Part shown: piece after piece, positions 38,653 through 51,309 of the stretch
Position numbering within the stretch: position 1 is the first letter of the stretch
How the letters are laid out: the number at the start of each line of letters is the position of its first letter
Source of the DNA: a bacterium
GTDB taxonomy: Bacteria > Chloroflexota > Dormibacteria > Dormibacterales > Dormibacteraceae
Direction of reading: 5' to 3'
Length of the DNA stretch: 64,000 bases
Assembly (NCBI GenBank): GCA_004299235.1
Contig: SCQL01000033.1
Location: forward strand, 84,846-148,845
Made by a program: the position numbers and the translations under genes
Notes under the pieces: model-generated
What the model saw: the letters and a program-made list of their open reading frames with translations, nothing else
What the model was told of the DNA's origin: nothing
The model's database searches: none

Positions 38653-39488
38653 GATCCCGCCAGCCAGGCGGCGATCAGGTCGAAGACCTGCTCGTGGCCG
38701 AGATCGTTGAACGGCTCATGGTAGCGACCCTCGAGGAGGTGCAGCCGGCTCATCGCCGCGGCTCTTTCGTGCAGTTCGCGGCTCCCCCGGGGATCGATCA
38801 GCGCGTCGGCGGTGCCGGCCAGGATCAGGAAGGGGACCTGGATCTCGCCGGCGCGGGTGAGGATGTCGCGGGCCGCGGCCTGCCACTCGTTGAAGGTCCG
38901 GCTTGAGATCCTGCTGTGGACCAGCGGATCGCGGCGGTACGCCTCGACCACCTCGGGAATCCGGGAGATCGTCCTCGGGTCGACTTCGTTGTCGAACGCC
39001 AGCTTCGGCGCCACCTTCGAGGCCACCCTACCGAGGCTGACCTTCCACCTCGGAGCCACGACATTCAGCTTGAGGGCCGGGCTCGAGACGATAAAACGCC
39101 GGGCCTTCGGCAGCTTGCCCGCGAGGGCGGCGCTCAGGATCACAGCGCCGCCGAACGAATGACCGACAGGCACGACCTCGCCGGCGGCAACCGTTTCCAC
39201 CAGCCGGACGAACGCCGCCGCATCGTCGGTCCATTGCGACCATCCATCCACGTGGCCGCGCGGGCCGGGGCTGTTGCCGTGGCCGCGAAGATCGACGGCA
39301 AACGTGCCCATGCCGCGCCCGGCCATGGCCTGGGCGAAACGCTCGTACCGCCCCGCATGCTCACCGAGCCCGTGGACGACCGCGAACGTGACGGCGGCGC
39401 CTGGCTTGGGCCACGCTCGATACGCCAGCCTGGTGCCGTCGGCGGATTCGACGAAGCCGCCGGTGGCCGCCTTGGTCTCAGCCGCCAA
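38649..39488 (-). CDS. Alpha/beta hydrolase (monoacylglycerol lipase-like)
   Basis: 279 residues from a TTG that overlaps the VirB4-like stop by 11 nt. FAVVHGLGEHAGRYERFA is the Hydrolase_4/lysophospholipase signature, followed by DLRGHGNSPGPRGHVDGW. The nucleophile is VPVGHSFGGAV, and ILAGTADALIDPRGSRELH gives the acid Asp and EGRYHEPFND the His. It likely hydrolyses monoacylglycerols or lysolipids. Confidence 0.88.
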   Translation of the reverse strand: MAAETKAATGGFVESADGTRLAYRAWPKPGAAVTFAVVHGLGEHAGRYERFAQAMAGRGMGTFAVDLRGHGNSPGPRGHVDGWSQWTDDAAAFVRLVETVAAGEVVPVGHSFGGAVILSAALAGKLPKARRFIVSSPALKLNVVAPRWKVSLGRVASKVAPKLAFDNEVDPRTISRIPEVVEAYRRDPLVHSRISSRTFNEWQAAARDILTRAGEIQVPFLILAGTADALIDPRGSRELHERAAAMSRLHLLEGRYHEPFNDLGHEQVFDLIAAWLAGS

Positions 39489-42198
39489 GGTGGCCGAAGC
39501 CTCTCAGGATCTTGAGCGCCTCCTGTTCGGCCTCCATCAACGTCGGCGCGTAAGCGCGGAGGCCGTACAGGGCGTATGCCCACTCGGGGCTGGGCGGACC
39601 CTGGGAGTGGAGGCGGAACGTCGGCGGATAGAAAAGGATGCGCTCGCCCTCCACCTTCTTGATCACCGGCCGCTTCGCCAGCACGTCCTCGAGCGACTGC
39701 CCGCTGGGCAACCGGCCGGATTCGAACTCCAGCCGGCGCAGCTTGGCCAGAGGATGGTTCTCGTCTTCGATCGCGGCGCGGATGCCGTACTCGGCACTCA
39801 GGTCCCGCAGGAAGATCGTGATGATCAACGCGTCCGTCTCGTCAGCGGCCATCTTGACAAAGCCGGCGGCGCTCACATCGCCGTGGTCCTCGTCGCGCAG
39901 GTGCCTGAAGTACTCCATCTCGAACAGACCGCGCGAGCGCGAGCTTGCGATCCAGGGCGGGTCGCAGCGCCAGGTGCGGGCCCCGGCCAGCGCCTCGAAC
40001 TGGGCGTGGACGCGCTCCAGCCGATGCTCTGGAAGGCTCCTTAAGCGGTAGTGGAGAACCCGCTGCAAGTTCGCAAATAAGCCTACGCGCCAGGGTGGGG
40101 GCCGCGCCGGTGCCCGCGCGAGCCGCATCGCCTCCTCCTGCCATGACGGCGCCTGGACCTGAACGGCCAGCCTTTCAGCACCCGCCGCGAGGAGGAATTC
40201 CCCACGACGAGCGGTTTCGAGAAACGCCCGTTGGTGGGAGCTAAGGTGAAATGTCTCCTGCAGCTTGGCGGCCTCGCCGGGACGCTGGGCGCCGAAGAAC
40301 GCCAATGCCGGATTGGTCGCCACCACCGCGCCCTGATCCGAGCTGAGCAGGTCGCCCGGATTCTGGGTGGCGAAGACCAACGATCCGTCGTACTTCCGGA
40401 TCCGCCGGGCGAGGCTGACCACGAACCGCCGGATGGTCGCATCCTCGAACAGGAGCCCGAGCTCGTCGACCACCAGCATCCGGCGATGGTCCTTGCGCTT
40501 GATGAGCGCCCACAGCGCTTCCGCGAGCAGGAAGTGGACGGGGGCGACCATCTCGTCGCGCAGCTCGCGCATGCCGAACACGACGATCGGGGCCTCGAGG
40601 TCGACATTGGTGGGTGCGCTGAACATCTGACCGAGGCTGCCGTGCACCCAGCGACCCAGGATCGTCGCCACTCGCGAACCCTGGGAAAGGACTTCGGCGA
40701 CGTCCCGCAAAAGCGGCTGATCCACATTGCGGTAGGCCTCGCGCACCGCGCTTTCGACATGCGCGCGCTCCGGTTCGTCCAGGCCGCCACAGATGGTCGC
40801 GCAAAGATCGACGGCGTCAGCGGCGGCCGGCCCGAGCCACGACTCATCCCGTCGATCGGAATGCCGCAGCTCGAGCACGTTCAGCGCGTGACCTGAACCC
40901 AGCGCGAGCTCCACGTCGATGCCGCCGAGCTGCTCGGCCAGGCCGCCGTATTCATGTTCCGGGTCGATGACGTAGACCTGTGTCCCCCTGCCCAGCGCGC
41001 CCATCGCGATGGCCGACAGGAGATAGGTCTTGCCGGCGCCGGAATGTCCGAACACGCCGATGTTCGCGTTGGCGTAACGCCGCTGGTCGAAGGGATCGAC
41101 GAGCACCGGCGCACCCGTGGCTCGGTTCCGGCCGATGACAAGGCCACCGGGCTGTTGAAGGTCGGCCTCCAACCAGGGAAAGAAGGTGACCAGTGCGCTG
41201 GTGTCGAGCACGCGCTTTCGCTCCAGCCGGTCGATGCACATTGGACGAGTGGCCAGGTAACCGTCGAACATCCTGAACGTGCACGGCCGGATGTGGCAGA
41301 GAATCCCGCGCGCGGCGGATTCCATCCTCTCCGCGCCCGCCCGCAAGTCATCTCTGGTGGGCGCGGTCAGGGTCAGGTAGACCGAGACGTGAAAGGCTTT
41401 GTCCTGGCTCGCGGTCAGGCGGCGCTGCAGGTCCTCCGCGTTCGGCATCGCGCCGGCCAGGTTCGGATCGGTCGCGCCGGCGTTCAGCTCCTGCAGGCGT
41501 GCCGCCCTCATGTTGATCAGCTGACGCTGCAGGTAATCGACGATCCACGCCACGGGCAGCGGCGTCGCGTGCCACGACAGGCTCACCTTCAGTCCCGGCG
41601 GCAGCAGACGAAACAGCCAGCCGGCCTCCAGCTCGGTGCCGGGGAGGCGTTCGACGTACCAGGTGGAACTGAAGCCACCCGAGTGCAGGAAACGGCCGGG
41701 TTGCTCTTTGCCAAATGCCGCCTCCCGCGCCGGCGGCGGCGAGGTGAAATCCACGCCCATCTCGCGCAGCGCGGACTCGACTCGCCCTGCCTGCCTGGTC
41801 GACGTGGTGAGCCTGGTGGTGAAGCGATGCGCGGACGGCGATCGCGCGATGTGATCGACAAACCATGCATCCGCCCCGCGCATGTCGTCGAAGTCGACCG
41901 GCCGCGGACTGCTTTCCAGCGGGTCGGCACCCGGCCCCGGCTCGACTTCGATCACGACCTGGAGCGGAGTATCCAGTCCATCGAGCAGCCGGCGAAACGA
42001 GTTGAGCCACCGCGAACGATCGGCCTCAACGGCGCCGGCAAAGCCGAGCGGCCCGGTTTGGATCACAGTCAGATCGTCGACGACTCGGTCCCACAGCACG
42101 CTCGGAGCTCGAGGCACGATTCGAGCCGCGCCGAGATTCAGCTCCCGGATCACATCACGCTGGCGCGGCGCTTGGCTCCGCGCTCGCGATGGGCTCAT
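39478..42198 (-). CDS. VirB4/TraC-like type IV secretion ATPase with C-terminal extension
   Basis: 906 residues from the ATG at 42198; open frame upstream to 42450 is spurious. The N-terminal 330 residues match the VirB4/CagE domain loosely. IGVFGHSGAGKTYLLSAIA is Walker A near residue 383, DPEHEYGGLAEQLGG follows, and RRMLVVDELGLLFED is Walker B near 574. VFATQNPGDLLSS is the sensor region. The final 200 residues (from about 705) are not typical of VirB4 and are unrecognised. It overlaps the PrgI-like gene, the usual gram-positive T4SS pairing, but no other conjugation genes (VirD4, relaxase, VirB6) are in the window. Confidence 0.8.
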   Translation of the reverse strand: MSPSRARSQAPRQRDVIRELNLGAARIVPRAPSVLWDRVVDDLTVIQTGPLGFAGAVEADRSRWLNSFRRLLDGLDTPLQVVIEVEPGPGADPLESSPRPVDFDDMRGADAWFVDHIARSPSAHRFTTRLTTSTRQAGRVESALREMGVDFTSPPPAREAAFGKEQPGRFLHSGGFSSTWYVERLPGTELEAGWLFRLLPPGLKVSLSWHATPLPVAWIVDYLQRQLINMRAARLQELNAGATDPNLAGAMPNAEDLQRRLTASQDKAFHVSVYLTLTAPTRDDLRAGAERMESAARGILCHIRPCTFRMFDGYLATRPMCIDRLERKRVLDTSALVTFFPWLEADLQQPGGLVIGRNRATGAPVLVDPFDQRRYANANIGVFGHSGAGKTYLLSAIAMGALGRGTQVYVIDPEHEYGGLAEQLGGIDVELALGSGHALNVLELRHSDRRDESWLGPAAADAVDLCATICGGLDEPERAHVESAVREAYRNVDQPLLRDVAEVLSQGSRVATILGRWVHGSLGQMFSAPTNVDLEAPIVVFGMRELRDEMVAPVHFLLAEALWALIKRKDHRRMLVVDELGLLFEDATIRRFVVSLARRIRKYDGSLVFATQNPGDLLSSDQGAVVATNPALAFFGAQRPGEAAKLQETFHLSSHQRAFLETARRGEFLLAAGAERLAVQVQAPSWQEEAMRLARAPARPPPWRVGLFANLQRVLHYRLRSLPEHRLERVHAQFEALAGARTWRCDPPWIASSRSRGLFEMEYFRHLRDEDHGDVSAAGFVKMAADETDALIITIFLRDLSAEYGIRAAIEDENHPLAKLRRLEFESGRLPSGQSLEDVLAKRPVIKKVEGERILFYPPTFRLHSQGPPSPEWAYALYGLRAYAPTLMEAEQEALKILRGFGHLGG

Positions 42199-42535
42199 GT
42201 CCCATGGAGGCACGCACCGCTCGCGATGGGCGCCCCCAGGCGCGTTCAAGCCAGCCGAGGTTCCACCGGACGCGGTAGCTCCTGATGGAAAAGAGCGCGA
42301 TGTCCGCGAGCCAATCGTCGGCCGCCCTACCCTGCCACCGTCCCCAAGCGACCGCAGCGCCGGCCCCGACCACGAGGCAACAAGCCATCGCTCGCACCGG
42401 TGATGGCGCCCAGCGGGAAGACCAGAGCGCAAATCCGGCCAGCAGCGCAACCACCATGTAGGCGAGTCGCGTGGGCGTCAGCCCGTAGAGCAGCTTATCC
42501 TCGAGATCGACGTCGAGGGGAACCCTGGCCGGCAT
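42155..42535 (-). CDS. PrgI-family T4SS membrane protein
   Basis: 126 residues from the ATG at 42535 (a TTG at 42565 is the longer alternative). MPARVPLDVDLEDKLLYGLT followed by TRLAYMVVALLAGFALW is the PrgI start with two adjacent TM helices, then a cytoplasmic tail. PrgI-like proteins are the small VirB3-like membrane partners of VirB4 ATPases. It overlaps the VirB4 gene by 44 nt and lies 90 nt from the tRNA-Lys. Confidence 0.75.
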   Translation of the reverse strand: MPARVPLDVDLEDKLLYGLTPTRLAYMVVALLAGFALWSSRWAPSPVRAMACCLVVGAGAAVAWGRWQGRAADDWLADIALFSIRSYRVRWNLGWLERAWGRPSRAVRASMGHEPIASAEPSAAPA

Positions 42536-42624: not shown

Positions 42625-42700
<76 letters not shown>

Positions 42701-42739
42701 TCATCATTGTGCAAGTTCGGGTGACAGGTCTCAAAAGGC

Positions 42740-42803
42740 CTTCGGCTGATGCGGCACACAACTTCGGCTGATGTGTCGCAGTTACTTCGGTTGGTTTGTC
42801 ACG
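42740..42803 (+). repeat. Three iterated subterminal repeats, left end of IS481
   Basis: CTTCGGCTGATGCGGCAC (42740), CTTCGGCTGATGTGTCGC (42762) and CTTCGGTTGGTTTGTCAC (42785), spaced 22-23 nt. They are probably transposase-binding sites. The second and third align with the two right-end copies. The first may belong to an older end. Confidence 0.65.
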
Positions 42804-42821
42804 CTCCCGCGCATGAGGGAG

Positions 42822-43172
42822 ATGAGCGTGACTGAGCAGCGATACAAAGCGGTCCTGGCGGTAATTGGCGACGGTCGGACGGTGGGCGAGGTGGCCAGGG
42901 ATTGGGGCATCTCTCGGCGGACCATGCACCGATGGCTGGCTCGCTATGAAGCCGAGGGCTTGGAGGGCCTGGGCAATCGGTCGCACCGGCCGGCGCATTG
43001 CCCGCACCAGATGCCCGCGGTGTGGGAAGCAAAGGTACTGGAGACACGCCGGGCCAAGCCGTACTGGGGTGCCCGACGGCTGGCGCTGGAGTTGACACGA
43101 AGGGGCGGGGCCGAACCGCCGCTGTCGGAGTCGGCGGTGTACCGCTGCCTGGTCCGGGCCGGGGTGATTTGA
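42822..43172 (+). CDS. IS481-family transposase, N-terminal part (helix-turn-helix)
   Basis: 116 residues from the ATG at 42822 (open frame extends to 42771). TVGEVARDWGISRRTMHRWL is the Mu/homeodomain-like HTH and KPYWGARRLALELTRRG the second DNA-binding segment. It stops at TGA 43170-43172 in the context GGGGTG ATT TGA C. Skipping one T restores I-D and joins the frame to the catalytic part at 43177. IS481 transposases are normally one ORF, so this is either a one-base insertion in a T run or a programmed +1 shift. Confidence 0.8.
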   Translation: MSVTEQRYKAVLAVIGDGRTVGEVARDWGISRRTMHRWLARYEAEGLEGLGNRSHRPAHCPHQMPAVWEAKVLETRRAKPYWGARRLALELTRRGGAEPPLSESAVYRCLVRAGVI

Positions 43173-43176
43173 CCCG

Positions 43177-43998
43177 GTGCAGCGCCGTTGGCGACGTGGG
43201 AACTGGAAGCGTTGGGAGCGAGGCGCACCCATGGAGCTCTGGCAGCTGGACACGGTCGGTGGCTTCTTACTCGCTGACGGGACCACGGCCAAGGCTCTGA
43301 CCGGAGTCGACGACCACTCGAGGTACTGCGTCTCGGCCCGGCTCATGCTCCGGGAGCGCACGCAATCTGTCTGTGATGGATTTACGTCTGCGTTGCGAAC
43401 CCACGGCATCCCAGCTCAGGTGCTGACCGATAACGGCAAGGTCTTTACCGGCCGCTTCGCCCAGCCTCCGGTCGAGGTTCTCTTTGACCGCATCTGCCGC
43501 GAGAACGGCGTCGACCACATCCTCACCCAACCCCGCTCACCGACCACCACAGGCAAGATCGAGCGCTTCCACAAGACGCTTCGAGTCGAGTTCGACACCA
43601 GACAGGTCTTCCGGACATTGAAGACGGCACAGGAGGCACTGGACGAATGGGTTAGCTACTACAACACGCAGCGTCCACATCAGTCGCTGGGCGACGCCAC
43701 GCCAGAGAGCCGCTTCCATTCGGGCGGCGAGCAGCCGCAGCATCGGTTGACTCCGCGCCCCGAGCGCAACGGCGAGCAGTGGGTTTGCCGCAAGGTGGCC
43801 AGCAACGGAGTCGTCTCCGTCGGCTACCAGCAAGTGAGCGTCGGACGGAACTACAGCGGCAGCGCCTGCGACGTTCTGGTGACCGACAGCTTGCTGCAGT
43901 TCTGGGTGGGCAGCGAGTTGCTCAAGACGGTGGCTCGCACAAGCCAAGGCCCTGTCCGCAAACTGCACGCCGACGGCACGGCACCGCGGCGGAAGTAG
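43177..43998 (+). CDS. IS481-family transposase, catalytic part (rve integrase core)
   Basis: 273 residues in the +1 frame relative to the preceding ORF. ELWQLDTVGGF gives the first Asp, AQVLTDNGKVF the second and SPTTTGKIERFHKTLRVEF the Glu, so the DDE triad is intact. YYNTQRPHQSLGDATPESRF is the conserved C-terminal signature of IS481/IS3-type integrases. A further 90-residue C-terminal region ends before the right repeats. Without frameshifting it lacks the DNA-binding domain. Confidence 0.85.
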   Translation: MQRRWRRGNWKRWERGAPMELWQLDTVGGFLLADGTTAKALTGVDDHSRYCVSARLMLRERTQSVCDGFTSALRTHGIPAQVLTDNGKVFTGRFAQPPVEVLFDRICRENGVDHILTQPRSPTTTGKIERFHKTLRVEFDTRQVFRTLKTAQEALDEWVSYYNTQRPHQSLGDATPESRFHSGGEQPQHRLTPRPERNGEQWVCRKVASNGVVSVGYQQVSVGRNYSGSACDVLVTDSLLQFWVGSELLKTVARTSQGPVRKLHADGTAPRRK

Positions 43999-44013
43999 AT
44001 TCAGTGAGAGTGG

Positions 44014-44054
44014 GACAGATCAGGCGAAGTAGCTTCACGACAGATCAACCGAAG
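44014..44054 (-). repeat. Two iterated subterminal repeats, right end of IS481
   Basis: Read on the minus strand these are CTTCGGTTGATCTGTCGTG (from 44054) and CTTCGCCTGATCTGTC (from 44029), spaced 25 nt. They are inverted relative to the left set and give terminal inverted repeats of about 45 bp. The outer copy also supplies the last codons (T-F-G-stop) of the recombinase remnant. Confidence 0.65.
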
Positions 44055-44070
44055 GTCGACAGGCCCACCA

Positions 44071-44090
44071 TGGCTTCCGTAACGCGAACC
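44071..44090 (-). repeat. R0: cassette-array core repeat within the recombinase 3' end
   Basis: Reads GGTTCGCGTTACGGAA followed by GCCA on the minus strand, coding V-R-V-T-E-A. The 16 core bases are identical to R1, R4 and R5 of the array, in the same reading frame, but R0 lies in inverted orientation relative to R1-R5. Confidence 0.9.
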
Positions 44091-44401
44091 GAGGTCGCGG
44101 GAAGACGGAAGGTCGGGATGATGCTGTCGCGGCTCTCGACCCGGACCTCGACGATCAACTCTTTGAGCAGCGCCTTGCGCTGACCCGGCGTGCCGTTGAG
44201 CATCGCGTCCCGGACCGCTTGTTCCGCGCTGCGCACGGCTTCCTGGGTTGGCACATCAACGGCGGTTGTGGAATCGCGCAACTCTGCGAGCTTCGCGCGA
44301 AGCTGAATCAAGCGACGCTCAAGCGCGTCGACTCGACTGCCGAACCGCGACTCGGATAGCCGGCCGTTCTCGAAGGCGCTGTAGTAGCGCTCGACAGCTG
44401 C

Positions 44402-44406
44402 TGAGT
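44402..44406. repeat. Target-site duplication TGAGT, left of IS21
   Basis: TGAGT directly abuts the IS21 left tip at 44407 and is repeated at 46843-46847. IS21-family elements make 4-8 bp duplications. Confidence 0.9.
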
Positions 44407-44505
44407 TGCGCGTGGCCATGTGAAAGTACCCATCCGTGGCCGGTCGAAGTCCCCACCCTCGACTGTCTGATTTAGCCACCGGGTGCGTCCCCCGGGCCGG
44501 GCAAA

Positions 44506-46014
44506 GTGGAGATGTCTCAATCCCACCAGCCCACCCGGAGGACCCACCTATTGAAGACGACGAGGGAGCATTTGAACATCATCGATGCGTTTCATGATCT
44601 GGGGAGCTACCGAGCGGCGGCGCGCTTGTGCGGTACGACGCACAAGACTGTGAGGAAGGTTGTCGAGCGGCACGAGGCAGGCGGCCCTTGGGCGCGGAGG
44701 CCGCGGCTGACGTCGAGGAACACCGACAAGGTGATGTCGGTCATCCGAGAGCGGGTGCGCACGACCGACGGCCGCATCTCCGCCAAACGATTACTTCCGG
44801 CGGCGCGCGCCGCTGGCTACAAGGGCTCCGCCCGCAATCTTCGTCGCGCGGTCGCCAAGGTCAAGGCGGAGTGGCGGCGGGAGCGACGAATCTATCGACC
44901 TTGGGTGCCGAGCCCGGGCCAGCACCTGGTCGTGGACTGGACCAAGATCGCGGTCGGCCTGCACATGTTCTGCGCCGTGTCCGCGTGGTCGCGATACCGC
45001 TTCGTGCGCTTCGCCAGCGACGAGACCAAGGAGACGACCCTGACCTTGATGGCGGAATGCTTTGAGGAACTGGGAGCGGTGCCGGCGGTCGTGCTCACCG
45101 ACCGCATGGCCTGTCTCAAGAATGGGGTCGTCGCCAACGTCGTGGTGCCTCACCCCGACTACGTCCGCTTCGCCGCGCACTACGGTTTCCGGCCGGACTT
45201 CTGCGAAGCCCAAGACCCGGAATCGAAGGGCGTCGTCGAGAACCTGTGCGGGTATGCGCAACGCGATCTGGTCGTGCCCGCGGACAACTTCGGCGGCGAC
45301 GTCGCGAGCGGCAATCGCCAAGCCAAGCTCTGGGGTCTCGAGGTGAACGACCGCGTCCACAGCGAGACGCAGGCGACTCCGGACGTGCGACTGGTGGAGG
45401 AGCGAGCGCTGATGCGACCGCTGCCGTCTCTGCGACCGGCGCTCTGTCGTGGCCAGCTGCGCAAGGTCGACCGCATGCAAACGATTCGCTTCGGCGCGGC
45501 CCGCTACTCGTTGCCGACCGCCTGGGTGGGCAAGCAGATCGAGGTCACCGTGCAGGACCACGAGGTGCTGCTCGCGTACGACGGAAACGAGATCGAAAGG
45601 CATCTGCTCATGGCGCCCGGTGAGGTCTCTATTAAGGATGAGCACTACCAGGGCAAGTCGAGGATGCCGGCACGGGCTATCCGCGTTCGGACCGGGACCG
45701 AGCGTGCGTTCATCGCGCTCGGACCTCCCGCCGAAGCCTTCCTGCGTGCAGCGGCGGCGGTCGGCACATCGCGACTGGCAGCCGAGCTCGCGGACATCGT
45801 GACCCTGGAGATGAGCTGGAGTCGTGAGCAGCTGCTGGCGGCGCTGGAGCGGGCGACTCGCTTCCGTCGCTTCAAGGCAGCTGACATTCGCTCCATCCTC
45901 GAGGCTGGTCCATCGGCTCCCAACCCGGTGCCCGCTGGCGACGCGCTGAAATTAGCGCTGCCGGAGGTTCCGGTCAGACCGCTGAGCGCCTACTCCCTGG
46001 AGGCGATTCGATGA
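44506..46014 (+). CDS. istA: IS21-family transposase IstA
   Basis: 502 residues from a GTG (an ATG two codons later is equally good). The HTH is SYRAAARLCGTTHKTVRKVV. The rve core shows GQHLVVDWTKIAVG, AVVLTDRMACLKNG and DPESKGVVENLCGYAQRDL, an intact DDE triad. A C-terminal Mu-type domain follows. The gene overlaps istB by 4 nt (ATGA). It cuts and joins the IS ends with IstB help. Confidence 0.93.
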   Translation: MEMSQSHQPTRRTHLLKTTREHLNIIDAFHDLGSYRAAARLCGTTHKTVRKVVERHEAGGPWARRPRLTSRNTDKVMSVIRERVRTTDGRISAKRLLPAARAAGYKGSARNLRRAVAKVKAEWRRERRIYRPWVPSPGQHLVVDWTKIAVGLHMFCAVSAWSRYRFVRFASDETKETTLTLMAECFEELGAVPAVVLTDRMACLKNGVVANVVVPHPDYVRFAAHYGFRPDFCEAQDPESKGVVENLCGYAQRDLVVPADNFGGDVASGNRQAKLWGLEVNDRVHSETQATPDVRLVEERALMRPLPSLRPALCRGQLRKVDRMQTIRFGAARYSLPTAWVGKQIEVTVQDHEVLLAYDGNEIERHLLMAPGEVSIKDEHYQGKSRMPARAIRVRTGTERAFIALGPPAEAFLRAAAAVGTSRLAAELADIVTLEMSWSREQLLAALERATRFRRFKAADIRSILEAGPSAPNPVPAGDALKLALPEVPVRPLSAYSLEAIR

Positions 46015-46784
46015 GCACGACCGCGCTACCACTCGCACCGGACCTGGTCGCCGGTCTGCGCCGCCTCAAACTCTCGACCGTCCGGGCCATCGCACCGGAC
46101 GTGTGCCAAACCGCCAAGACTCAGCGCTGGGCGCCGGACGAATTTCTGCGCACCCTCAACGAAGCGGAGATCTCGGCGCGCGATGAATCCAACTACCAGA
46201 ACCGATTGAAGATGGCCGGCTTCCCAGTCACCAAGACCCTCGATGACTTCAAGCTCCAGATCTCGTCAGTCCCCAAGGCAACCTTCGACTACCTCGCCTC
46301 ATTGGAATGGATCAGAGCCAAGGAGGACCTCATCCTTGTCGGTCCAGCGGGCACTGGCAAGTCGCATCTGCTTGTCGGTCTCGGTCACGCGGCCGTGCGT
46401 GCCGGCCTGCGCGTTCGTTTCTTCGTTGCCTCCGACCTCGTCGAGACGCTCTACCGCGGCCTCGCAGACAACTCGGTGGGCAAAGTCATCGATGGTCTGC
46501 TGCGCGCCGACCTGGTTCTCCTCGACGAGCTGGGCTTTGCACCACTTGACCTCACCGGCACCCAGCTCCTCTTCCGTTTCATCGCCGCCGCCTATGAGCG
46601 GCGTGCGCTTGGCATCGCCAGCCACTGGCCCTTCGACCAATGGGGACGTTTCCTTCCGGAGCCGACCACAGCCACCTCAATGATTGATCGCCTCCTCCAC
46701 CACAGCGTCGTGGTGGTCACCGAGGGCGAGTCCTACAGGCTCCGCGAAGCCCGTTCAAGAGGAGGTGAGCGCCACAAGAAGTGA
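46011..46784 (+). CDS. istB: IS21-family helper ATPase IstB
   Basis: 257 residues. Walker A is LVGPAGTGKSHLLVGLG and Walker B DLVLLDELGFAPLD. The N-terminal SNYQNRLKMAGFPVTKTLDD is the typical IstB helical domain. A DnaA/DnaC-like AAA+ protein, it regulates target choice and activates IstA. It ends 58 nt before the right IS tip. Confidence 0.93.
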   Translation: MSTTALPLAPDLVAGLRRLKLSTVRAIAPDVCQTAKTQRWAPDEFLRTLNEAEISARDESNYQNRLKMAGFPVTKTLDDFKLQISSVPKATFDYLASLEWIRAKEDLILVGPAGTGKSHLLVGLGHAAVRAGLRVRFFVASDLVETLYRGLADNSVGKVIDGLLRADLVLLDELGFAPLDLTGTQLLFRFIAAAYERRALGIASHWPFDQWGRFLPEPTTATSMIDRLLHHSVVVVTEGESYRLREARSRGGERHKK

Positions 46785-46842
46785 GCGCCGGGTGGGGACT
46801 TTCACCTGGCCAAAAGTGGGGACTTTGAGTTGGCCATTGACA

Positions 46843-46890
46843 TGAGTACCTGCCTGGATCGTCGAGCCGGCCAGAGATGCTAAGCGGCTT
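46843..46890 (-). pseudogene. Short continuation of the serine recombinase remnant right of IS21
   Basis: After removing IS21 and one TGAGT copy, the minus frame reads LSISGRLDDPGRY directly into SAAVERYYSAFENG. This fits the end of the recombinase domain and its linker. A TGA at 46891-46893 blocks further reading, so the recombinase was already truncated before or independently of the IS21 insertion. The first five bases are the second TGAGT copy. Confidence 0.6.
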
Positions 46891-47017
46891 TCAGGAAAAG
46901 GTGGCCGGCAAATGGATGCCGTATGTCGGTCGCGAGTTGACGACGAGCCCACAGTTCCGTGTCAAGGTTTCATCCGACAACTCGGTTCTAATCTGGGATG
47001 TTCGGCAGCCAACGTAA
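46877..47017 (+). CDS. Short hypothetical ORF between IS21 and the array
   Basis: 46 residues from an ATG, MLSGFQEKVAGKWMPYVG, later VKVSSDNSVLIWDVRQPT. The composition is protein-like and its third positions are less GC-rich than the surrounding chromosome. No family is recognised. It may be a fragment of a cassette gene truncated by rearrangement. The rest of 46785-47153 shows only the IS end and GC-rich spacer. Confidence 0.3.
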   Translation: MLSGFQEKVAGKWMPYVGRELTTSPQFRVKVSSDNSVLIWDVRQPT

Positions 47018-47153
47018 AGATCGCGCACTGCCCACGTTCAGGCCTAGACAATTAACCCGAGGGTGTCTGGCAAAGCCGCCGCCGATCCATCACCGCCCAC
47101 CGTCCGAATGCCGGGTGCACCTAGACTGATCGGCCGAGCGGTCACTGCCGGTT

Positions 47154-47179
47154 GGTTCGCGTTACGGAAACTACGGCCC
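47154..47179 (+). repeat. R1 array repeat
   Basis: Core GGTTCGCGTTACGGAA followed by ACTACGGCCC. The left flank ATCGGCCGAGCGGTCACTG (from about 47129) is shared with R3, so these two copies match over about 50 bp. Confidence 0.95.
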
Positions 47180-47219
47180 ATGCGTTACGTCGGTCGCAGG
47201 GCGGCGGGCGGATATCGGT

Positions 47220-47573
47220 TCAGGTCTGCGCCAAGGCAAACGCCAGCACAGCCAGGACAACGGCAATTGCTACGCCGAGAACTGCGGCGACCAAGGTATA
47301 TGTACCGACAGACATGCCGGCGATTCTGCGCCCAGAAGCAGCCACGCGCAGGAAGGGATAGAAGATCGCAGCGCTGGCTACTACGCCGAGCATCACCCCG
47401 CTTATGCCCAGAAGTACGCCGCGCTGACCGGCCCACTGCCTTACGGCGAACACCAGCCACCCGATTCCGGCAAGGACGGGGATATAGCTGAACCACAGCC
47501 AGCGGAGGGATCGCCGTATTGCGGCACTTCTCTCGGGATCCTCGCGAGCGCGTTCACCGTGGCCGCCGACCAT
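47220..47573 (-). CDS. Cassette A: membrane protein of unknown function
   Basis: 117 residues, starting MVGGHGERAREDPERSAAIR with AGGAAG upstream. Three TM helices are visible (FSYIPVLAGIGWLVFAV; GVLLGISGVMLGVVASAAIF; TLVAAVLGVAIAVVLAVLAF). The first 13 codons are homologous to a free-standing leader ORF upstream of cassette D, although the rest of the proteins differ. The stop lies 40 nt from R1. No family is recognised. Confidence 0.6.
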   Translation of the reverse strand: MVGGHGERAREDPERSAAIRRSLRWLWFSYIPVLAGIGWLVFAVRQWAGQRGVLLGISGVMLGVVASAAIFYPFLRVAASGRRIAGMSVGTYTLVAAVLGVAIAVVLAVLAFALAQT

Positions 47574-47618
47574 CTTCCTGCGACGCTAGGTTAAGCCGAT
47601 GGGGGCTGATCTCAATGT

Positions 47619-47644
47619 GGTTCGCATTACGGAAACTACGGCCC
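47619..47644 (+). repeat. R2 array repeat
   Basis: One difference from R1: core reads GGTTCGCATTACGGAA (V-R-I-T-E in the conserved frame). The left flank, over about 80-90 nt, resembles that of R5. Confidence 0.95.
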
Positions 47645-47671
47645 GCGCTCTGACAGTGTGCCGCGCTGAGA

Positions 47672-48865
47672 TTAGTGGCTGACTTGGACGCCTGCGTGAA
47701 ATGTGAACACTGCAATCATCACGACGACCGTGATCACGATCGCGATGCCGACTCCTAACACTCCCGCATTAACCGTGAGTTTGCTTACAGAGCCGGGGTA
47801 GCGCCGAGCTAGTTCGTCAGCCGGCGCCGTCTCCCAGCTGCCCTGCAGCGGGACGTTCAATTCGTGCCCAAGCGCGGCGACGTCAAAAGCCCGACTGACC
47901 CGGAGTAAGACCCGGTCGTCGCGATCCAGGAGCAGCGCCATTGGGATTGGGACCGAAGCGGATGTTTTGCTGCTGACCTGGACTATGCGATGGACAGCAG
48001 CGCGATCGCAACTCTTGCCGCCGAGGCCAGTCAACGTCACTACGTGGGGGCCGACAAGGATCCGGCTTGTCTTGTAGAAAGCGAACAGCAGGACGGGTAC
48101 GCCAATCCCGAATAAAACGATCAGGATCGCGTCGGCTCCAATGGCCGCCCATCCGTGCCCGCGTATCGCTTTGCTCGCGTCAATGGCGGCTTTGACGAGA
48201 AGTCCAACCACGAACACGCCCACAAGCACCCAGGAGGTCCGCACCCTCCGGCGGCTCGGAAGCAGTACGAGGGTTTGGGAATCGCTCTCCGAGGCGGCTG
48301 GTCCAACAAATTGAGGTATTGGAGGCCCTGCCGCGCTTCGGGGCCCGATCAATGCCAGCTTCTTCAGACGCCGAAGGCTCCAGATGCCCGTGCTCAGCCC
48401 CGCTGCCCCGAATGCCGTTATCAGGCCGAACAGAAAGATGCCGGACGGGGTGCTCGATAGCTCGGAGGCAGGGTCATCGACGGTCGGGAACTCGTCGCCG
48501 TGAATGATGAGCAACCGCGCTTTGCCCTGCCAATATCGCACCGATACCTGATCGCTTGCGTGAACGCCGTCGCGGGCAAGGTCAATGTTGCTGACTGCGA
48601 TGGCTTCAGTAGCGCGCGCCGTCCGGACGGTGATCGAGCCGCTAGTGCCGCTGCTGCTCGTCCCATAGTTAGCGTCCGTAACGGTGCCTGGCAGAGTCCG
48701 ATAGCAAGAGGGGCTCTGTTGCTCGCACTCAGTCGCGGCCTGGTACTGCGATATGTCGCTCCGCGCTTGGAACCAGATGATCGTCAGGCCGAAAAGAAAG
48801 ACCAGACCGACACCGATCGCGAGGACTCCGAACACGATTCGAGCCCACGCCCAGATCCGAACCAT
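47672..48865 (-). CDS. Cassette B: large membrane protein with DUF3592/PH-like features
   Basis: 397 residues. TM1 is WARIVFGVLAIGVGLVFLFG, followed by an extracytoplasmic beta-rich region with two Cys (TECEQQSPSCYRTLPG) reminiscent of DUF3592-type proteins. Further TM helices lie at FLFGLITAFGAAGLSTG, VLVGVFVVGLLVKAAI and ILIVLFGIGVPVLLFAF. A cytoplasmic PH-like segment (ILVGPHVVTLTGLGGKSC) precedes a final TM. Function is unknown. The stop lies 27 nt from R2, and the start is 189 nt from R3. Confidence 0.6.
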   Translation of the reverse strand: MVRIWAWARIVFGVLAIGVGLVFLFGLTIIWFQARSDISQYQAATECEQQSPSCYRTLPGTVTDANYGTSSSGTSGSITVRTARATEAIAVSNIDLARDGVHASDQVSVRYWQGKARLLIIHGDEFPTVDDPASELSSTPSGIFLFGLITAFGAAGLSTGIWSLRRLKKLALIGPRSAAGPPIPQFVGPAASESDSQTLVLLPSRRRVRTSWVLVGVFVVGLLVKAAIDASKAIRGHGWAAIGADAILIVLFGIGVPVLLFAFYKTSRILVGPHVVTLTGLGGKSCDRAAVHRIVQVSSKTSASVPIPMALLLDRDDRVLLRVSRAFDVAALGHELNVPLQGSWETAPADELARRYPGSVSKLTVNAGVLGVGIAIVITVVVMIAVFTFHAGVQVSH

Positions 48866-49054
48866 GGCGCCGAGATTCTATGTCTCGCCGGCGAAGTTCA
48901 GGTCCATCACGGCATGATTTCCAGTCTCGGAGACCTTCTTGAGAATTGAGTTGCCCGAAGGCTCCGAAGCTTCCTTATGAGCTGCAGCTTGCGTGTCGTA
49001 GGTGTCGGGTGTCGGGAGCACAGAGGCCAATCGGCCGAGCGGTCACTGTCGGTT

Positions 49055-49080
49055 GATTCGCGTTACGGAAACTACGGCCC
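49055..49080 (+). repeat. R3 array repeat
   Basis: One difference from R1 (GATTCGCG instead of GGTTCGCG). The left flank from about 49030 is shared with R1. The minus-strand stop codon TAG of cassette C gene 1 lies inside this repeat (49072-49074). Confidence 0.95.
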
Positions 49081-49308
49081 CTTCAGCGCGGCCCCGCTGA
49101 GCAGAACAGCGACGAATGCGGCGACCGCCAGTAGCAACCCGACCAAGACGAACGGTATCCGCCACCGTACTTCCGTTTCGAGAAACCCGCGCGTTGTCCG
49201 ACCCGCAGCGAATCTGGCTCGCCACAGGCGGTAACGGGCGAAGACCAGCGCCAGCGGTGCGGTCAGAAGGAGCGCACCGACGATGAGGAGTTGGAGCCAG
49301 AACGGCAT
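49072..49308 (-). CDS. Cassette C gene 1: small two-TM membrane protein
   Basis: 78 residues, MPFWLQLLIVGALLLTAPLA and PFVLVGLLLAVAAFVAVLLS as TM helices with a basic loop between (RYRLWRARFAAGRTTRG). Its stop codon is provided by R3, so the insertion of the repeat fixes the C-terminus. Function unknown. Confidence 0.5.
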   Translation of the reverse strand: MPFWLQLLIVGALLLTAPLALVFARYRLWRARFAAGRTTRGFLETEVRWRIPFVLVGLLLAVAAFVAVLLSGAALKGP

Positions 49309-49444
49309 GCCGGCCGATGGTACTCGCCGGTGTGCGAATTAGTTCAATGCAGGGCATTGGGTTCGACCGCGCCTCTTATAGTCCGCACGACAATGGGATA
49401 TCCCCTGCCACTCTTCGTGTCGCGAACGCTGGCGAAACAACCTA

Positions 49445-49945
49445 TTGCTCCCAGACGGGGTCCCTTTCCGGCTAGTCGTCCAGGCTGTATTTAGTGGAGT
49501 GGACTGCTCGATCTATGCGATCGGGTCGTTGGTATTGATCGGCTTTGGTTTGGCCGTTGCAGCACATGCCCTGCCGAGCGGCTCTAGATCCAGCGATGTA
49601 CCCGGTGGTCTGGCGATCTTCGGGTTCGGATTGCTCTGTGGATTGCTCCCGTCTTTCAGGGTCTGGCAGGTGGCACGCGCACTTCGCGAAGGCGATGCCC
49701 ATCTGGCTGACGTTCTCGAGGCGGAGGTCGGCACGGCCAGGATCTACGGAACTCCCTGGGGGGAGCCTATGGGCACGCGAACGCGTCCAATCGCTGCCAC
49801 CGGTACCTACCGGCTGACCGATACGGGTGAGAACGGTCGGTACTACATGCAGCAATGGTGGGCGACAAGGCTGCAGCCGGGTGCTCGGATTTGGGTTCTC
49901 CGGCGTCTCGGCCGGGACGTCCTTTACGCTCCGGTGAACGACTAG
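49445..49945 (+). CDS. Cassette C gene 2: membrane protein of unknown function
   Basis: 166 residues from a TTG; the true start is uncertain. Two TM helices (AIGSLVLIGFGLAVAAHAL; GLAIFGFGLLCGLLPSF) precede a soluble domain with EAEVGTARIYGTPWGEPMG and YYMQQWWATRLQPGARIWVL. This is the only rightward gene in the interior of the array. R4 begins 43 nt after its stop. The 49309-49444 spacer shows nothing else. Confidence 0.5.
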   Translation: MLPDGVPFRLVVQAVFSGVDCSIYAIGSLVLIGFGLAVAAHALPSGSRSSDVPGGLAIFGFGLLCGLLPSFRVWQVARALREGDAHLADVLEAEVGTARIYGTPWGEPMGTRTRPIAATGTYRLTDTGENGRYYMQQWWATRLQPGARIWVLRRLGRDVLYAPVND

Positions 49946-49988
49946 GGTCGGTTGAGTGTGATCCTTCGACCTACGACCGTGATGCTTT

Positions 49989-50014
49989 GGTTCGCGTTAC
50001 GGAAACTACCGCCC
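49989..50014 (+). repeat. R4 array repeat
   Basis: One difference from R1, a synonymous change in the conserved frame (ACG to ACC). It forms an inverted pair with R4' at 50033. Confidence 0.95.
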
Positions 50015-50032
50015 ACACCAATTCGATGGGCT

Positions 50033-50048
50033 TTCCATAACGCGAACC
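50033..50048 (-). repeat. R4': inverted partial repeat
   Basis: Minus strand reads GGTTCGCGTTATGGAA, 15 of 16 core bases identical to R1. With R4 it forms a dyad with a loop of about 18 nt, capable of a long hairpin in single-stranded DNA. Confidence 0.85.
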
Positions 50049-50058
50049 GAAGGCACGT

Positions 50059-50508
50059 CTACAAGCTGCGATCGTTGCGGTCGCGTTTCTTATGCCTAGC
50101 GAACCAAGCCTCGAACCACTTGTGGTACAGCTCCCATGCGCGATGGAACTGCTGGGGATCAACCACCCACGCAACCGCGGCGGCGCGGCTCGGCGGCCGG
50201 GTTCTCCATTTGTCCAACGTGTCGAGAAAACGGGTGATGTGGCCACGTCGTACAGAGTTGATCTCCTTGAACAGCTTCTCCCCGGCCTCAGTCAGCGAGT
50301 AGCGATCCGGCGAACCGATCACAAGCCCGGCACCTACGAGCTGGCCTACGGCAGAACTGAACTCATCGACAGTCGGGATTGCGTGATTGTTCGAATCCGC
50401 TGCGGCGATGACCTTGTCCAACGGTGCTCCGCCGGTGCCGGCAGCGTCGCCTATCGAAAGGAAGATCCAGGCTTCGGCGCCGGTCCAGCCTCGCTCGTCT
50501 GATCCCAT
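50059..50508 (-). CDS. Cassette D: winged-helix-like hypothetical protein
   Basis: 149 residues. EAWIFLSIGDAAGTGGAPL and AAADSNNHAIPTVDEFSSAV followed by LVGAGLVIGSPDRYSLTEAG resemble a winged-helix domain with a wing ending in the common D/S-R-Y-x-L-T-x-x-G pattern. A basic C-terminal tail (FARHKKRDRNDRSL) follows. The ATG at 50508 follows a leader ORF by 6 nt. The stop lies 44 nt from R4. Confidence 0.55.
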   Translation of the reverse strand: MGSDERGWTGAEAWIFLSIGDAAGTGGAPLDKVIAAADSNNHAIPTVDEFSSAVGQLVGAGLVIGSPDRYSLTEAGEKLFKEINSVRRGHITRFLDTLDKWRTRPPSRAAAVAWVVDPQQFHRAWELYHKWFEAWFARHKKRDRNDRSL

Positions 50509-50514
50509 TTGCCT

Positions 50515-50565
50515 CTAGGGAGCTGGGTCCTCGCGAGCGCGATTACTATCGTCGCCGACCATCAT
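50515..50565 (-). CDS. Leader ORF upstream of cassette D, homologous to the N-terminus of cassette A
   Basis: 16 codons, MMVGDDSNRAREDPAP, ending TAG 6 nt before the cassette D start. Cassette A begins MVGGHGERAREDP in frame with its product. The two DNAs align over about 60 nt including the upstream TAG-n-GTCGC block. A shared translation-initiation or promoter module is inferred. Confidence 0.4.
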   Translation of the reverse strand: MMVGDDSNRAREDPAP

Positions 50566-50613
50566 CCCGGCGACACTAACACAAATGGATCGGGCGACCG
50601 CAGACTTCGATTT

Positions 50614-50639
50614 GGTTCGCGTTACGGAAACGACAGCCC
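50614..50639 (+). repeat. R5 array repeat
   Basis: Core identical to R1. Two differences follow in the tail (ACGACAGCCC), both synonymous for T-T in the conserved frame. It is the last recognisable copy. Confidence 0.95.
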
Positions 50640-50688
50640 CTGCCGTCTAGAATCGCAGCGCCGTGAACACGAGACAAGCCCCATTTTC

Positions 50689-51084
50689 ATTGCTGTCGGT
50701 TCACCCCGCGGGTGGCGTGTCGTTAACGAGGCTATTGAATTCGAGCTCTGGCTGAGCAAGTACCTGATTGACGGCACAGCTCGAGTGCTGCATCGCGCTT
50801 TCAAGTTCACGAGTGGGGAGGCAGCCGCTTACAGCACGTTCTTGCGGGAGGTGACAAGCAGGGCAGGCGGCATTGTCGAGCCCAACGTTCGCGTTACCGA
50901 ATGCGAGGACTGGGAGGACAGCCGGGTCCTGGAGCTGGCTCAGACAGTCGGGGCGTTTCTGATCGTGAGCTCGGATGATCACCTCTTTTCGATGTCGCCT
51001 TGGCGTGGCATTCCCGTCCAATCGCCCGAGGCGTTCGTATCACGGGTCGACGCCATGCGGCGCCGATCCCGGAAAGGCTCTTGA
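50689..51084 (+). pseudogene. Cassette E: N-terminally truncated PIN-domain protein
   Basis: The frame shows SPRGWRVVNEAIEFELWLSK, VRVTECEDWEDSRVLELA and AFLIVSSDDHLFSMSPWRGI, the middle and C-terminal parts of VapC/COG-type PIN ribonuclease toxins. The first strand with the catalytic Asp (LDTN-type) is missing. No ATG or GTG lies in frame upstream until a distant TTG at 50509, so it is probably inactive. The homology starts about 60 nt after R5. No antitoxin gene is seen. The stretch 51085-51309 shows nothing I can name. Confidence 0.6.
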
Positions 51085-51309
51085 CGACCGAGACTGATCG
51101 AGTCGCTCTGAACAGTGGTATAGAGATGGTCGAGGACCGCTTGCGCAGCGCGTGTGGCTGCACCCCGGACTCGGGCACCGGCGCACCCCGAAGGCCGGCT
51201 GCTTGACTTGGGCTCGGTGACCGCGGGCACGGCGCCGGTGCGGCTCTCGGCTCAAATCCTCAAGCCTTCCTTGGTGGCGGCCCTACTGCTGACGGCCGAG
51301 GCAGGTGCG

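What the first reader, a model, noticed from the sequence alone, without database searches (positions are those of the whole stretch)
44045..51084. Integron-like array of small gene cassettes tied to a large serine recombinase
Five direct 26-bp repeats (R1-R5) separate four complete intervals and one open one. Each holds one or two short, atypical, mostly membrane-protein genes. The 16-bp repeat core GGTTCGCGTTACGGAA is also the 3' coding end of the large serine recombinase remnant at the island's left end (R0), in the same reading frame. This is the layout of an integron (recombinase, recombination site, cassettes), but integrons use tyrosine recombinases and foldable attC sites. Here the site is short and coincides with the recombinase C-terminal codons. 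The core identity and spacing are seen directly. That the repeats are recombination sites is inference. The main alternative is accretion: successive serine-integrase elements inserted at one site and decayed, leaving only att scars. I know of no described serine-recombinase cassette system with this layout.
Basis: partly seen in the sequence, partly recalled or inferred. Interest (0 to 1): 0.93.

Follow-up and report, generated by a model that had tools for sequence, protein, structure and literature searches.

The report
Serine-recombinase gene-cassette array beside tRNAs
Dormibacteria carry rows of small gene cassettes, many of them beside tRNA genes; the same cassettes turn up in different rows and different genera, and most end in one arm of an attachment site that also forms the tail of a serine recombinase gene, an enzyme that likely moves them, so the system looks like an integron but would use a different kind of enzyme.

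Summary
The repeats are real and part of a wider system. The core occurs in 32 of 42 genomes of the window's family, taken as Dormibacteraceae, in arrays of up to 16 boundaries on one contig. The repeat is one arm (P') of a serine-recombinase attachment site ending in GGCCCACCA, a tRNA 3' end; conservation runs from -31 to +29 and stops at +30. Units, mostly 0.6-1.3 kb, start right after GGCCCACCA and end with P'. One unit occurs twice in one array, another in two genera with both flanks changed at the crossover. A tRNA-Leu locus is empty in one species and filled in its congener, breaking at GCCCACCA. Intact CcrB-like serine recombinases have this site as their 3' end, and their element ends in the same P' arm. 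Called genes face either way (47 to 52) and the arm shows no attC-like folding. Most array genomes lack the recombinase, so its action is inferred. Nearest known: Dehalococcoides ssrA islands, SCC, dif modules and, by analogy, integrons.

The parts
44062..44402 (-). C-terminal remnant of the large serine recombinase (R0 element); frame ends ..PTFRLPATSVRVTEAMVG
   Evidence: 73-82% nucleotide identity to the recombinase genes of L031, L062, L075, L077, alignments ending 2-3 nt from the crossover; ORF 44045-44479
44062..44090 (-). R0: P half of the attachment site: core GGTTCGCGTTACGGAA followed by gccaTGGTGGGCC
44430..46840 (+). IS21-type insertion (istA 44506-46014, istB 46011-46784) inside the recombinase element; outer bounds approximate
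   Evidence: Pfam rve, Mu-transpos_C_2, IstB_IS21
47123..47183 (+). R1: P' site, right end of the recombinase element
   Evidence: its upstream arm scores 16.45 bits against the cassette-end matrix built without it
47180..47644 (.). cassette 1, 465 bp, one gene 47220-47573 (-), 117 aa, hydrophobic, no Pfam match
47588..47648 (+). R2: P' site, end of cassette 1
47645..49080 (.). cassette 2, 1436 bp, gene 47672-48865 (-), 397 aa, hydrophobic stretches; relative in G006 (88% over 1267 bp) with other sequence after its P' site
   Evidence: 14 protein relatives listed, none with a Pfam domain
49024..49084 (+). R3: P' site, end of cassette 2
49081..50014 (.). cassette 3, 934 bp, ORFs 49072-49308 (-) and 49445-49945 (+)
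   Evidence: the first is a gene call; the second has a DUF202 match below cut-off
49958..50018 (+). R4: P' site, end of cassette 3
50015..50056 (-). P-type half site with inverted core 50033-50048 (ATGG variant): start of cassette 4; with R4 it makes the palindrome
   Evidence: (I5)
50015..50639 (.). cassette 4, 625 bp, P start and P' end, gene 50059-50508 (-), 149 aa, winged-helix match below cut-off
50583..50643 (+). R5: P' site, end of cassette 4
50640..51106 (+). probable cassette 5, PIN-domain gene ending 51084; homology to a cassette in L068 stops where the L068 core begins, so its own P' core seems to be missing
   Evidence: PIN_3 5.7e-05, below cut-off; alignments with L068

Best explanation
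The repeats are the ends of gene cassettes: compact units (465 to 1436 bp here) that start right after a sequence like a tRNA 3' end (GGCCCACCA) and end with one arm, P', of the attachment site of a CcrB-like large serine recombinase, which likely inserts and excises them in trans by crossing over inside GGCCCACCA. Shown by sequence: where units start and end, that they recur as units in new contexts, an empty and a filled tRNA site, and that the cassette end matches the end of the recombinase's own element. Inferred: the enzyme, its action in trans, and the HTH protein of its element as directionality factor. In this scheme left halves are P' or a tRNA 3' end and right halves are P or anything: P'+P is attP, tRNA+flank is attB, and a cassette circle with P' but no P would be a one-armed attP. 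In the window only the C-terminal end of the recombinase remains, beside an IS21, so this array has no working enzyme of its own.
For: Among 104 distinct P' sites conservation runs from -31 to +29 and stops at +30 (the core itself was a selection criterion, its flanks were not). In L071 a YCII-type cassette occurs twice in one array, 97% identical, both copies starting at CGGCCCACCA (after a tRNA fragment in one, after P' in the other) and ending at P'; a Phd cassette of G028 and G034 (different genera) is 95% identical with different flanks on both sides; in L063/L067 one unit follows P' in one genome and a tRNA fragment in the other. tRNA-Leu(GAG) locus: 16 bp to the next conserved gene in G031, 1130 bp in its congener G032 with a P'-ended ParE cassette. 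The recombinases of G029 (526- and 544-aa frames) end in the core and read on into a tRNA 3' end; related copies of the element lie at two places in G029, 97% alike at the P' end, where the alignment stops 3 nt from the crossover. The P' arms of these elements match the cassette-end matrix (10.25 and 10.05 bits; 1.4e-4 and 1.9e-4 of the null), 28 P-type halves have a median of -9.2. 15 of the 18 nearest listed homologues carry VRVTE and 2 VRVME, codings of the two core variants; 1 of the other 102 does. 36 of 39 loci with two or more boundaries have all on one strand.
Against: A cognate recombinase is intact in 1 of 42 family genomes and present as a broken gene or fragment in 2 more; 11 of the 14 genomes I picked have no PF07508 hit. 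Exchange of P' sites with one another or of one-armed sites with attB is not canonical for serine integrases. Units ending in tRNA fragments (35 of 96 intervals of 100-4000 bp) may belong to other integrases. At the tRNA-Leu locus 11 of 22 measurable genomes have 581-8612 bp between tRNA and the next gene without a core site. The genomes are largely metagenome-derived and in many contigs; no circle, read junction or assay was available.
Confidence: 0.78

Rival explanations
1. Accretion and decay: successive full serine-integrase elements inserted at one site, then lost their genes and P ends, leaving att scars between unrelated DNA.
For: The window itself holds a decayed recombinase element (R0-R1). 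15 of 106 P' right halves carry a P half, as stacked elements would. Dehalococcoides ssrA islands show such stacking (PMC3146451, passages read). My P' sites were picked by an intact core, so decayed P' copies are not counted.
Against: 86 of 106 right halves fit P no better than shuffles although the P' beside them is intact. Units bounded by GGCCCACCA and P' recur in new contexts. 54 of the 73 intervals with a gene call hold one gene.
Confidence: 0.1
2. The cassettes are shuffled by homologous recombination between repeat copies, or by another unseen recombinase, and the serine-recombinase element is only one guest of the array.
For: Most array genomes lack the enzyme. P' copies share 30-60 bp, enough for some homologous exchange inside arrays. 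tRNA-ended units are common.
Against: Exchanges between a tRNA-fragment flank and a P' flank share only about 9-11 bp around GGCCCACCA. In the 14 genomes checked no PF00589 hit lies on a contig from which I took an array, except one in G029:C1 about 14 kb from the recombinase (many of these contigs are short). The cassette ends match the recombinase element's own P' arm.
Confidence: 0.09
3. A tyrosine-recombinase integron with unusual attC sites.
For: Small cassettes, one-directional site array, variable content, toxin-antitoxin genes among the cargo.
Against: IntI above its curated cut-off in 1 of 42 genomes, on a contig without boundaries. No folding signal in the 35 nt upstream of the core (mean z 0.04, control 0.07) and no consensus fold over arm and core (RNA parameters). 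The site forms the 3' end of a serine recombinase.
Confidence: 0.02
4. The repeats are a transcription or regulatory element or chance similarity.
For: Several repeats lie just downstream of ORFs.
Against: Counts far above shuffles; no fixed relation to gene direction; repeats mark breakpoints between genomes.
Confidence: 0.01

Closest known systems
Dehalococcoides ssrA genomic islands (DsiB serine recombinase; PMC3146451, passages read)
   Same: Tandem islands downstream of an RNA gene 3' end, bounded by a 20-bp repeat of that end; CcrB-like recombinase whose 3' end overlaps attL; a 15-bp motif next to each repeat, comparable to a P' arm; 15 islands without the integration module.
   Different: There: reductive dehalogenase and other genes, a 6-gene module with a second small recombinase (DsiA), target ssrA. 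Here: tRNA-Ile and tRNA-Leu type sites, P'-ended units with a median of 832 bp, most without P at their start, core in 32 of 42 genomes of one family.
Staphylococcal cassette chromosome (SCC; CcrA/B/C)
   Same: Large serine recombinase of similar sequence (NCBIfam CcrB 2.2e-50, below its cut-off); tandem units at one attachment site, some without ccr (recalled).
   Different: Target orfX/rlmH rather than a tRNA, large cassettes, no arrays of one-gene units (recalled).
Integron gene cassettes
   Same: One-directional array of small cassettes, each carrying its site at one end; variable content; toxin-antitoxin cargo.
   Different: Serine instead of tyrosine recombinase; no sign of a folding site; no common gene orientation; tRNA 3' ends instead of attI.
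dif modules of Acinetobacter (XerC/XerD; PMC13141974, passages read)
   Same: Small modules shuffled at short recombination sites by an enzyme encoded elsewhere.
   Different: Xer sites with alternating C and D modules, on plasmids; here nearly all boundaries of an array have one orientation.

Membership tests
Integron | IntI tyrosine integrase (TIGR02249 above cut-off) with the array | tested here: not met
   1 of 42 genomes, on a 3.4-kb contig without any array boundary
Integron | attC sites that fold as single strands | tested here: not met
   35 nt upstream of the core: z 0.04 (se 0.09) over 104 sites; RNAalifold gives no pair over arm and core (RNA parameters)
Integron | cassettes bounded by one site each, moving as units | tested here: met
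Integron | cassette genes mostly in one orientation behind a common promoter | tested here: not met
   47 same, 52 opposite among 99 called genes; promoters not tested
Large-serine-integrase element accretion at an RNA gene (SCC / ssrA-island kind) | large serine recombinase with Resolvase, Recombinase and zinc-ribbon domains | tested here: met
   PF00239, PF07508, PF13408 above cut-off for the G029 enzyme; CcrB is the best NCBIfam model, below cut-off
Large-serine-integrase element accretion at an RNA gene (SCC / ssrA-island kind) | recombinase 3' end overlaps the attachment site | tested here: met
   window R0, L031, L062, L075, L077; 17 of the 18 nearest listed homologues carry VRV[TM]E
Large-serine-integrase element accretion at an RNA gene (SCC / ssrA-island kind) | units stacked in one orientation at an RNA gene 3' end | tested here: met
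   36 of 39 loci one strand; tRNA-Leu and tRNA-Ile loci; no tRNA-type end is left at the window's array
Large-serine-integrase element accretion at an RNA gene (SCC / ssrA-island kind) | each unit flanked by attL and attR, i.e. a P end and a P' end | tested here: not met
   24 of 101 intervals start with P; 43 have P' at the end and no P at the start
Large-serine-integrase element accretion at an RNA gene (SCC / ssrA-island kind) | site-specific excision and integration by the enzyme | not testable with these tools
   needs an assay or raw reads
dif modules | XerC/XerD sites at the boundaries | tested here: not met
   by eye only: the 16-bp core and GGCCCACCA do not resemble the Xer sites listed in PMC13141974

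The most novel reading that the evidence does not exclude
A serine integron: a gene-cassette capture and shuffling system run by a large serine recombinase, in which recombinase-free one-gene cassettes carry a one-armed attP (P' plus the tRNA 3'-end sequence), insert at tRNA 3' ends or between one another, and build arrays that persist after the enzyme is lost.
Probability: 0.5. Interest if true: 0.95.

Novelty: new variant of a known kind. Interest (0 to 1): 0.86.

Why it matters
The known systems that collect single genes as interchangeable cassettes, integrons and dif modules, use tyrosine recombinases. A serine-recombinase version, with cassettes defined by one arm of an attachment site, would show that cassette capture arose more than once. 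It would ask how an enzyme thought to need two-armed attP and attB sites handles one-armed sites, help explain gene turnover next to tRNA genes in Dormibacteria, and supply recombinases with small, natural multi-site arrays.

Tried and rejected
Folding of the site as attC: no signal. Tyrosine recombinases or IntI as the enzyme: no PF00589 hit on the contigs from which I took arrays in the 14 genomes checked, except one about 14 kb from the recombinase in G029:C1; IntI. Arrays around other recombinases: I examined 45 of the 79 loci (the two of palsa_840 and 43 at 49-56% identity). A tRNA-like arm follows the recombinase end in 33 of 45; tail 18-mers recur elsewhere in 14 of 45. In the eight strongest of these they recur at one to three other places, so no array was seen; the other six have one or two single matches each. 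Exact 28-mer in viral contigs: none. Phylum-wide 29-mer with up to 3 mismatches: 7 of 12 family genomes, 0 of 19 other genomes of the class, 1 of 220 beyond (G078, one site; transfer or binning error). BLAST-end enrichment (263 of 1895 ends within 30 nt of a crossover, 1.05% of positions expected) is inflated because many short matches are the site itself or tRNA fragments; I rely on the long matches instead. Literature: searches, judged by titles and abstract starts, listed no serine-recombinase cassette array; only open-licence papers are held.
Full report
Observation. The core GGTTCGCGTTACGGAA is at R0-R5 as described: 9 matches with up to 3 mismatches in the window against 0.50 expected, 0 of 100 shuffles reaching 9. 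Two of the nine (50886, 63139) lack the flanks and are taken as chance. R0 is on the minus strand, R1-R5 on the plus strand. R4 pairs with an inverted core at 50033 to form a ~60-bp palindrome.

Host. The window's genome G000 (2.87 Mb, 96.8% complete) has a second locus on contig C2 with a frame-broken recombinase of the same kind. The family is taken as Dormibacteraceae: two G029 contigs equal in length two palsa_840 records titled Candidatus Dormiibacterota, and G025:C62 equals in length a contig of Candidatus Dormiibacter inghamiae (lineage). The handles themselves are unnamed.

Spread. With up to one mismatch the core is in 32 of 42 family genomes and in 14 of the 19 good ones; the reversed control pattern hits once each in two genomes. 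Outside the family the 29-mer (up to 3 mismatches) is in 0 of 19 genomes of the class and 1 of 220 beyond.

Anatomy. I fetched 60 stretches, nearly all around listed sites but not all listed sites. With the window, L031 and L062, and with two overlapping stretches joined, they make 62 loci. Sites were picked by the core (up to 2 mismatches), so core conservation is partly a selection effect; the flanks were not selected. Among 104 distinct P' sites, of which three are probably P halves in disguise, conservation is high to +29 (aCTaCGGCCCACCA), weak from -31 to -1 and absent from +30 on. P-type halves carry the inverted core followed by a spacer and GTGGGCC; recombinase tails are of this type. 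The outer side of five of six recombinase tails listed and of many P halves is a tRNA-like 3' end or its relic: tRNA-Ile type, or tRNA-Leu(GAG) in L062; in the window it is cut off by an IS. So the crossover lies in the shared GGCCCACCA, and attP would be P'+P.

Arrays. There are 106 P' boundaries with a readable right half and 60 tRNA-type boundaries, giving 101 intervals; 97 are under 4 kb, with a median of 1012 bp. P'-ended intervals of 100-4000 bp have a median of 832 bp (n = 61), tRNA-ended ones 1577 bp (n = 35). One interval, in the window, rests on the chance site 50886. In 36 of 39 loci with two or more boundaries all lie on one strand; the other three (L031, L070, L239) each contain one inverted core that by its sequence looks like a P half. 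By start and end type: no P start and P' end 43, no P start and tRNA end 34, P start and P' end 21, P start and tRNA end 3. Of 106 P' right halves, 15 show P (up to 3 mismatches), 5 are doubtful and 86 are like shuffles.

Movement. 32 of 99 intervals have a relative elsewhere in the set. Clear cases: a YCII-type cassette twice in one L071 array; a Phd cassette in G028 and G034; a unit after P' in G001 and after a tRNA fragment in G010; a ParE cassette after P' in L082, after a tRNA fragment in L229 and after another tRNA-like end in L100. The window's cassette 2 is in G006 at 88%; its start there has no recognisable boundary, but the sequence after its P' site closely matches what follows R5 in the window. 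At tRNA-Leu(GAG), 22 of 29 loci gave a distance to the conserved downstream gene: 16-133 bp in five genomes (G031, G030, G029, G022, G001), longer with core sites in six (G032, G036, G037, G015, G017, G004), 581-8612 bp without a core in eleven. G031 and G032 are of one genus. In G032 the tRNA sequence runs to GCCCACCA, then the cassette follows, and P' ends in GCCCACCA again; beyond it the first ~45 bp resemble G031 only weakly and clear homology then resumes in register.

Recombinase. G029 has two genes with open frames of 526 and 544 aa; the second has Resolvase, Recombinase and zinc-ribbon domains. Both end in the core and read on into a tRNA 3' end. The two elements (about 4.4 kb) are related copies, 97% alike over 1.5 kb at the P' end and 89-90% over 2.9 kb at the recombinase end; at the P' end the alignment stops 3 nt from the crossover, at the P end it runs on into the shared tRNA fragment. 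The element of L077 also carries an HTH_17 protein (candidate directionality factor, inferred) and a 422-aa protein without a Pfam match. The element's P' arm matches the cassette-end matrix built without it. The nearest 18 of 120 listed homologues carry VRVTE (15) or VRVME (2), matching the ACGG and ATGG core variants; one has neither. Against this, only 3 of 42 family genomes have a recognisable cognate enzyme and only one has it intact, and 11 of 14 checked genomes have no PF07508 hit. The enzyme's role is therefore inferred. The arrays either keep moving with an enzyme that comes and goes or are partly fossil.

Cargo. Of 96 intervals of 100-4000 bp, 73 had a gene call from a simple codon model; 54 of these had one gene; orientation of the 99 genes was 47 with and 52 against the array. 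I scanned 69 proteins (67 of the 99 and two window ORFs). The 25 best-represented of 89 Pfam families include SnoaL, DinB, TetR, Phd, ParE, methyltransferases, YCII and guanylate cyclase; single scans add P450, cupin and PIN. A few match candidate defence models (PycC, SoFic, mad2). No PF07508 or PF00589 hit lies on the array contigs of the 14 genomes checked apart from the recombinase elements themselves and the G029:C1 case. The window's cassette proteins have no Pfam match above cut-off.

Known systems. Dehalococcoides ssrA islands (PMC3146451, passages read) are the nearest: tandem islands at an RNA gene, CcrB-like DsiB overlapping attL, a 15-bp motif beside each repeat, 15 islands without the module. 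This case differs in unit size, in the lack of P on most units and in its tRNA targets. It works like an integron but fails three of the four integron tests made here. I call it a new variant of serine-recombinase accretion; the bolder reading, a serine integron, is not excluded.

Noticed in passing
window 42625-44061: tRNA-Lys(CTT) followed by an IS with an integrase-core transposase whose right end seems to abut GGCCCACCA of R0, hiding what lay outside the array; this tRNA's 3' end is GCGCGAGCACCA, not the GGCCCACCA type.
   Followed up: partly
window 39478-42450: 990-aa ORF with a P-loop that reads like a VirB4/TraC-type conjugation ATPase (by eye, no search); the array may lie beside a conjugative element.
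   Followed up: no
L198/L241 (G032:C254): An integron integrase above the curated cut-off in one family genome, on a contig without these sites.
   Followed up: partly
L031 15326 and L070 13156: Two inverted cores are followed by a shared sequence (TTTCGCAAG.GGGT..GCAGTG) instead of a tRNA end: perhaps another target.
   Followed up: no
tRNA-Leu(GAG) locus of 11 genomes: 581-8612 bp between tRNA and the next conserved gene without the core: perhaps other cassette or island types.
   Followed up: no
G078:C148 (L240): One P' site in a genome outside the class, beside a sequence 86% like a cassette of G006: transfer or binning error.
   Followed up: partly
homologues: 93 of 120 listed recombinase homologues carry an [LFI]EP motif in the last 140 residues, as expected if their genes run into tRNA 3' ends: tRNA targeting looks common in this subfamily.
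   Followed up: partly
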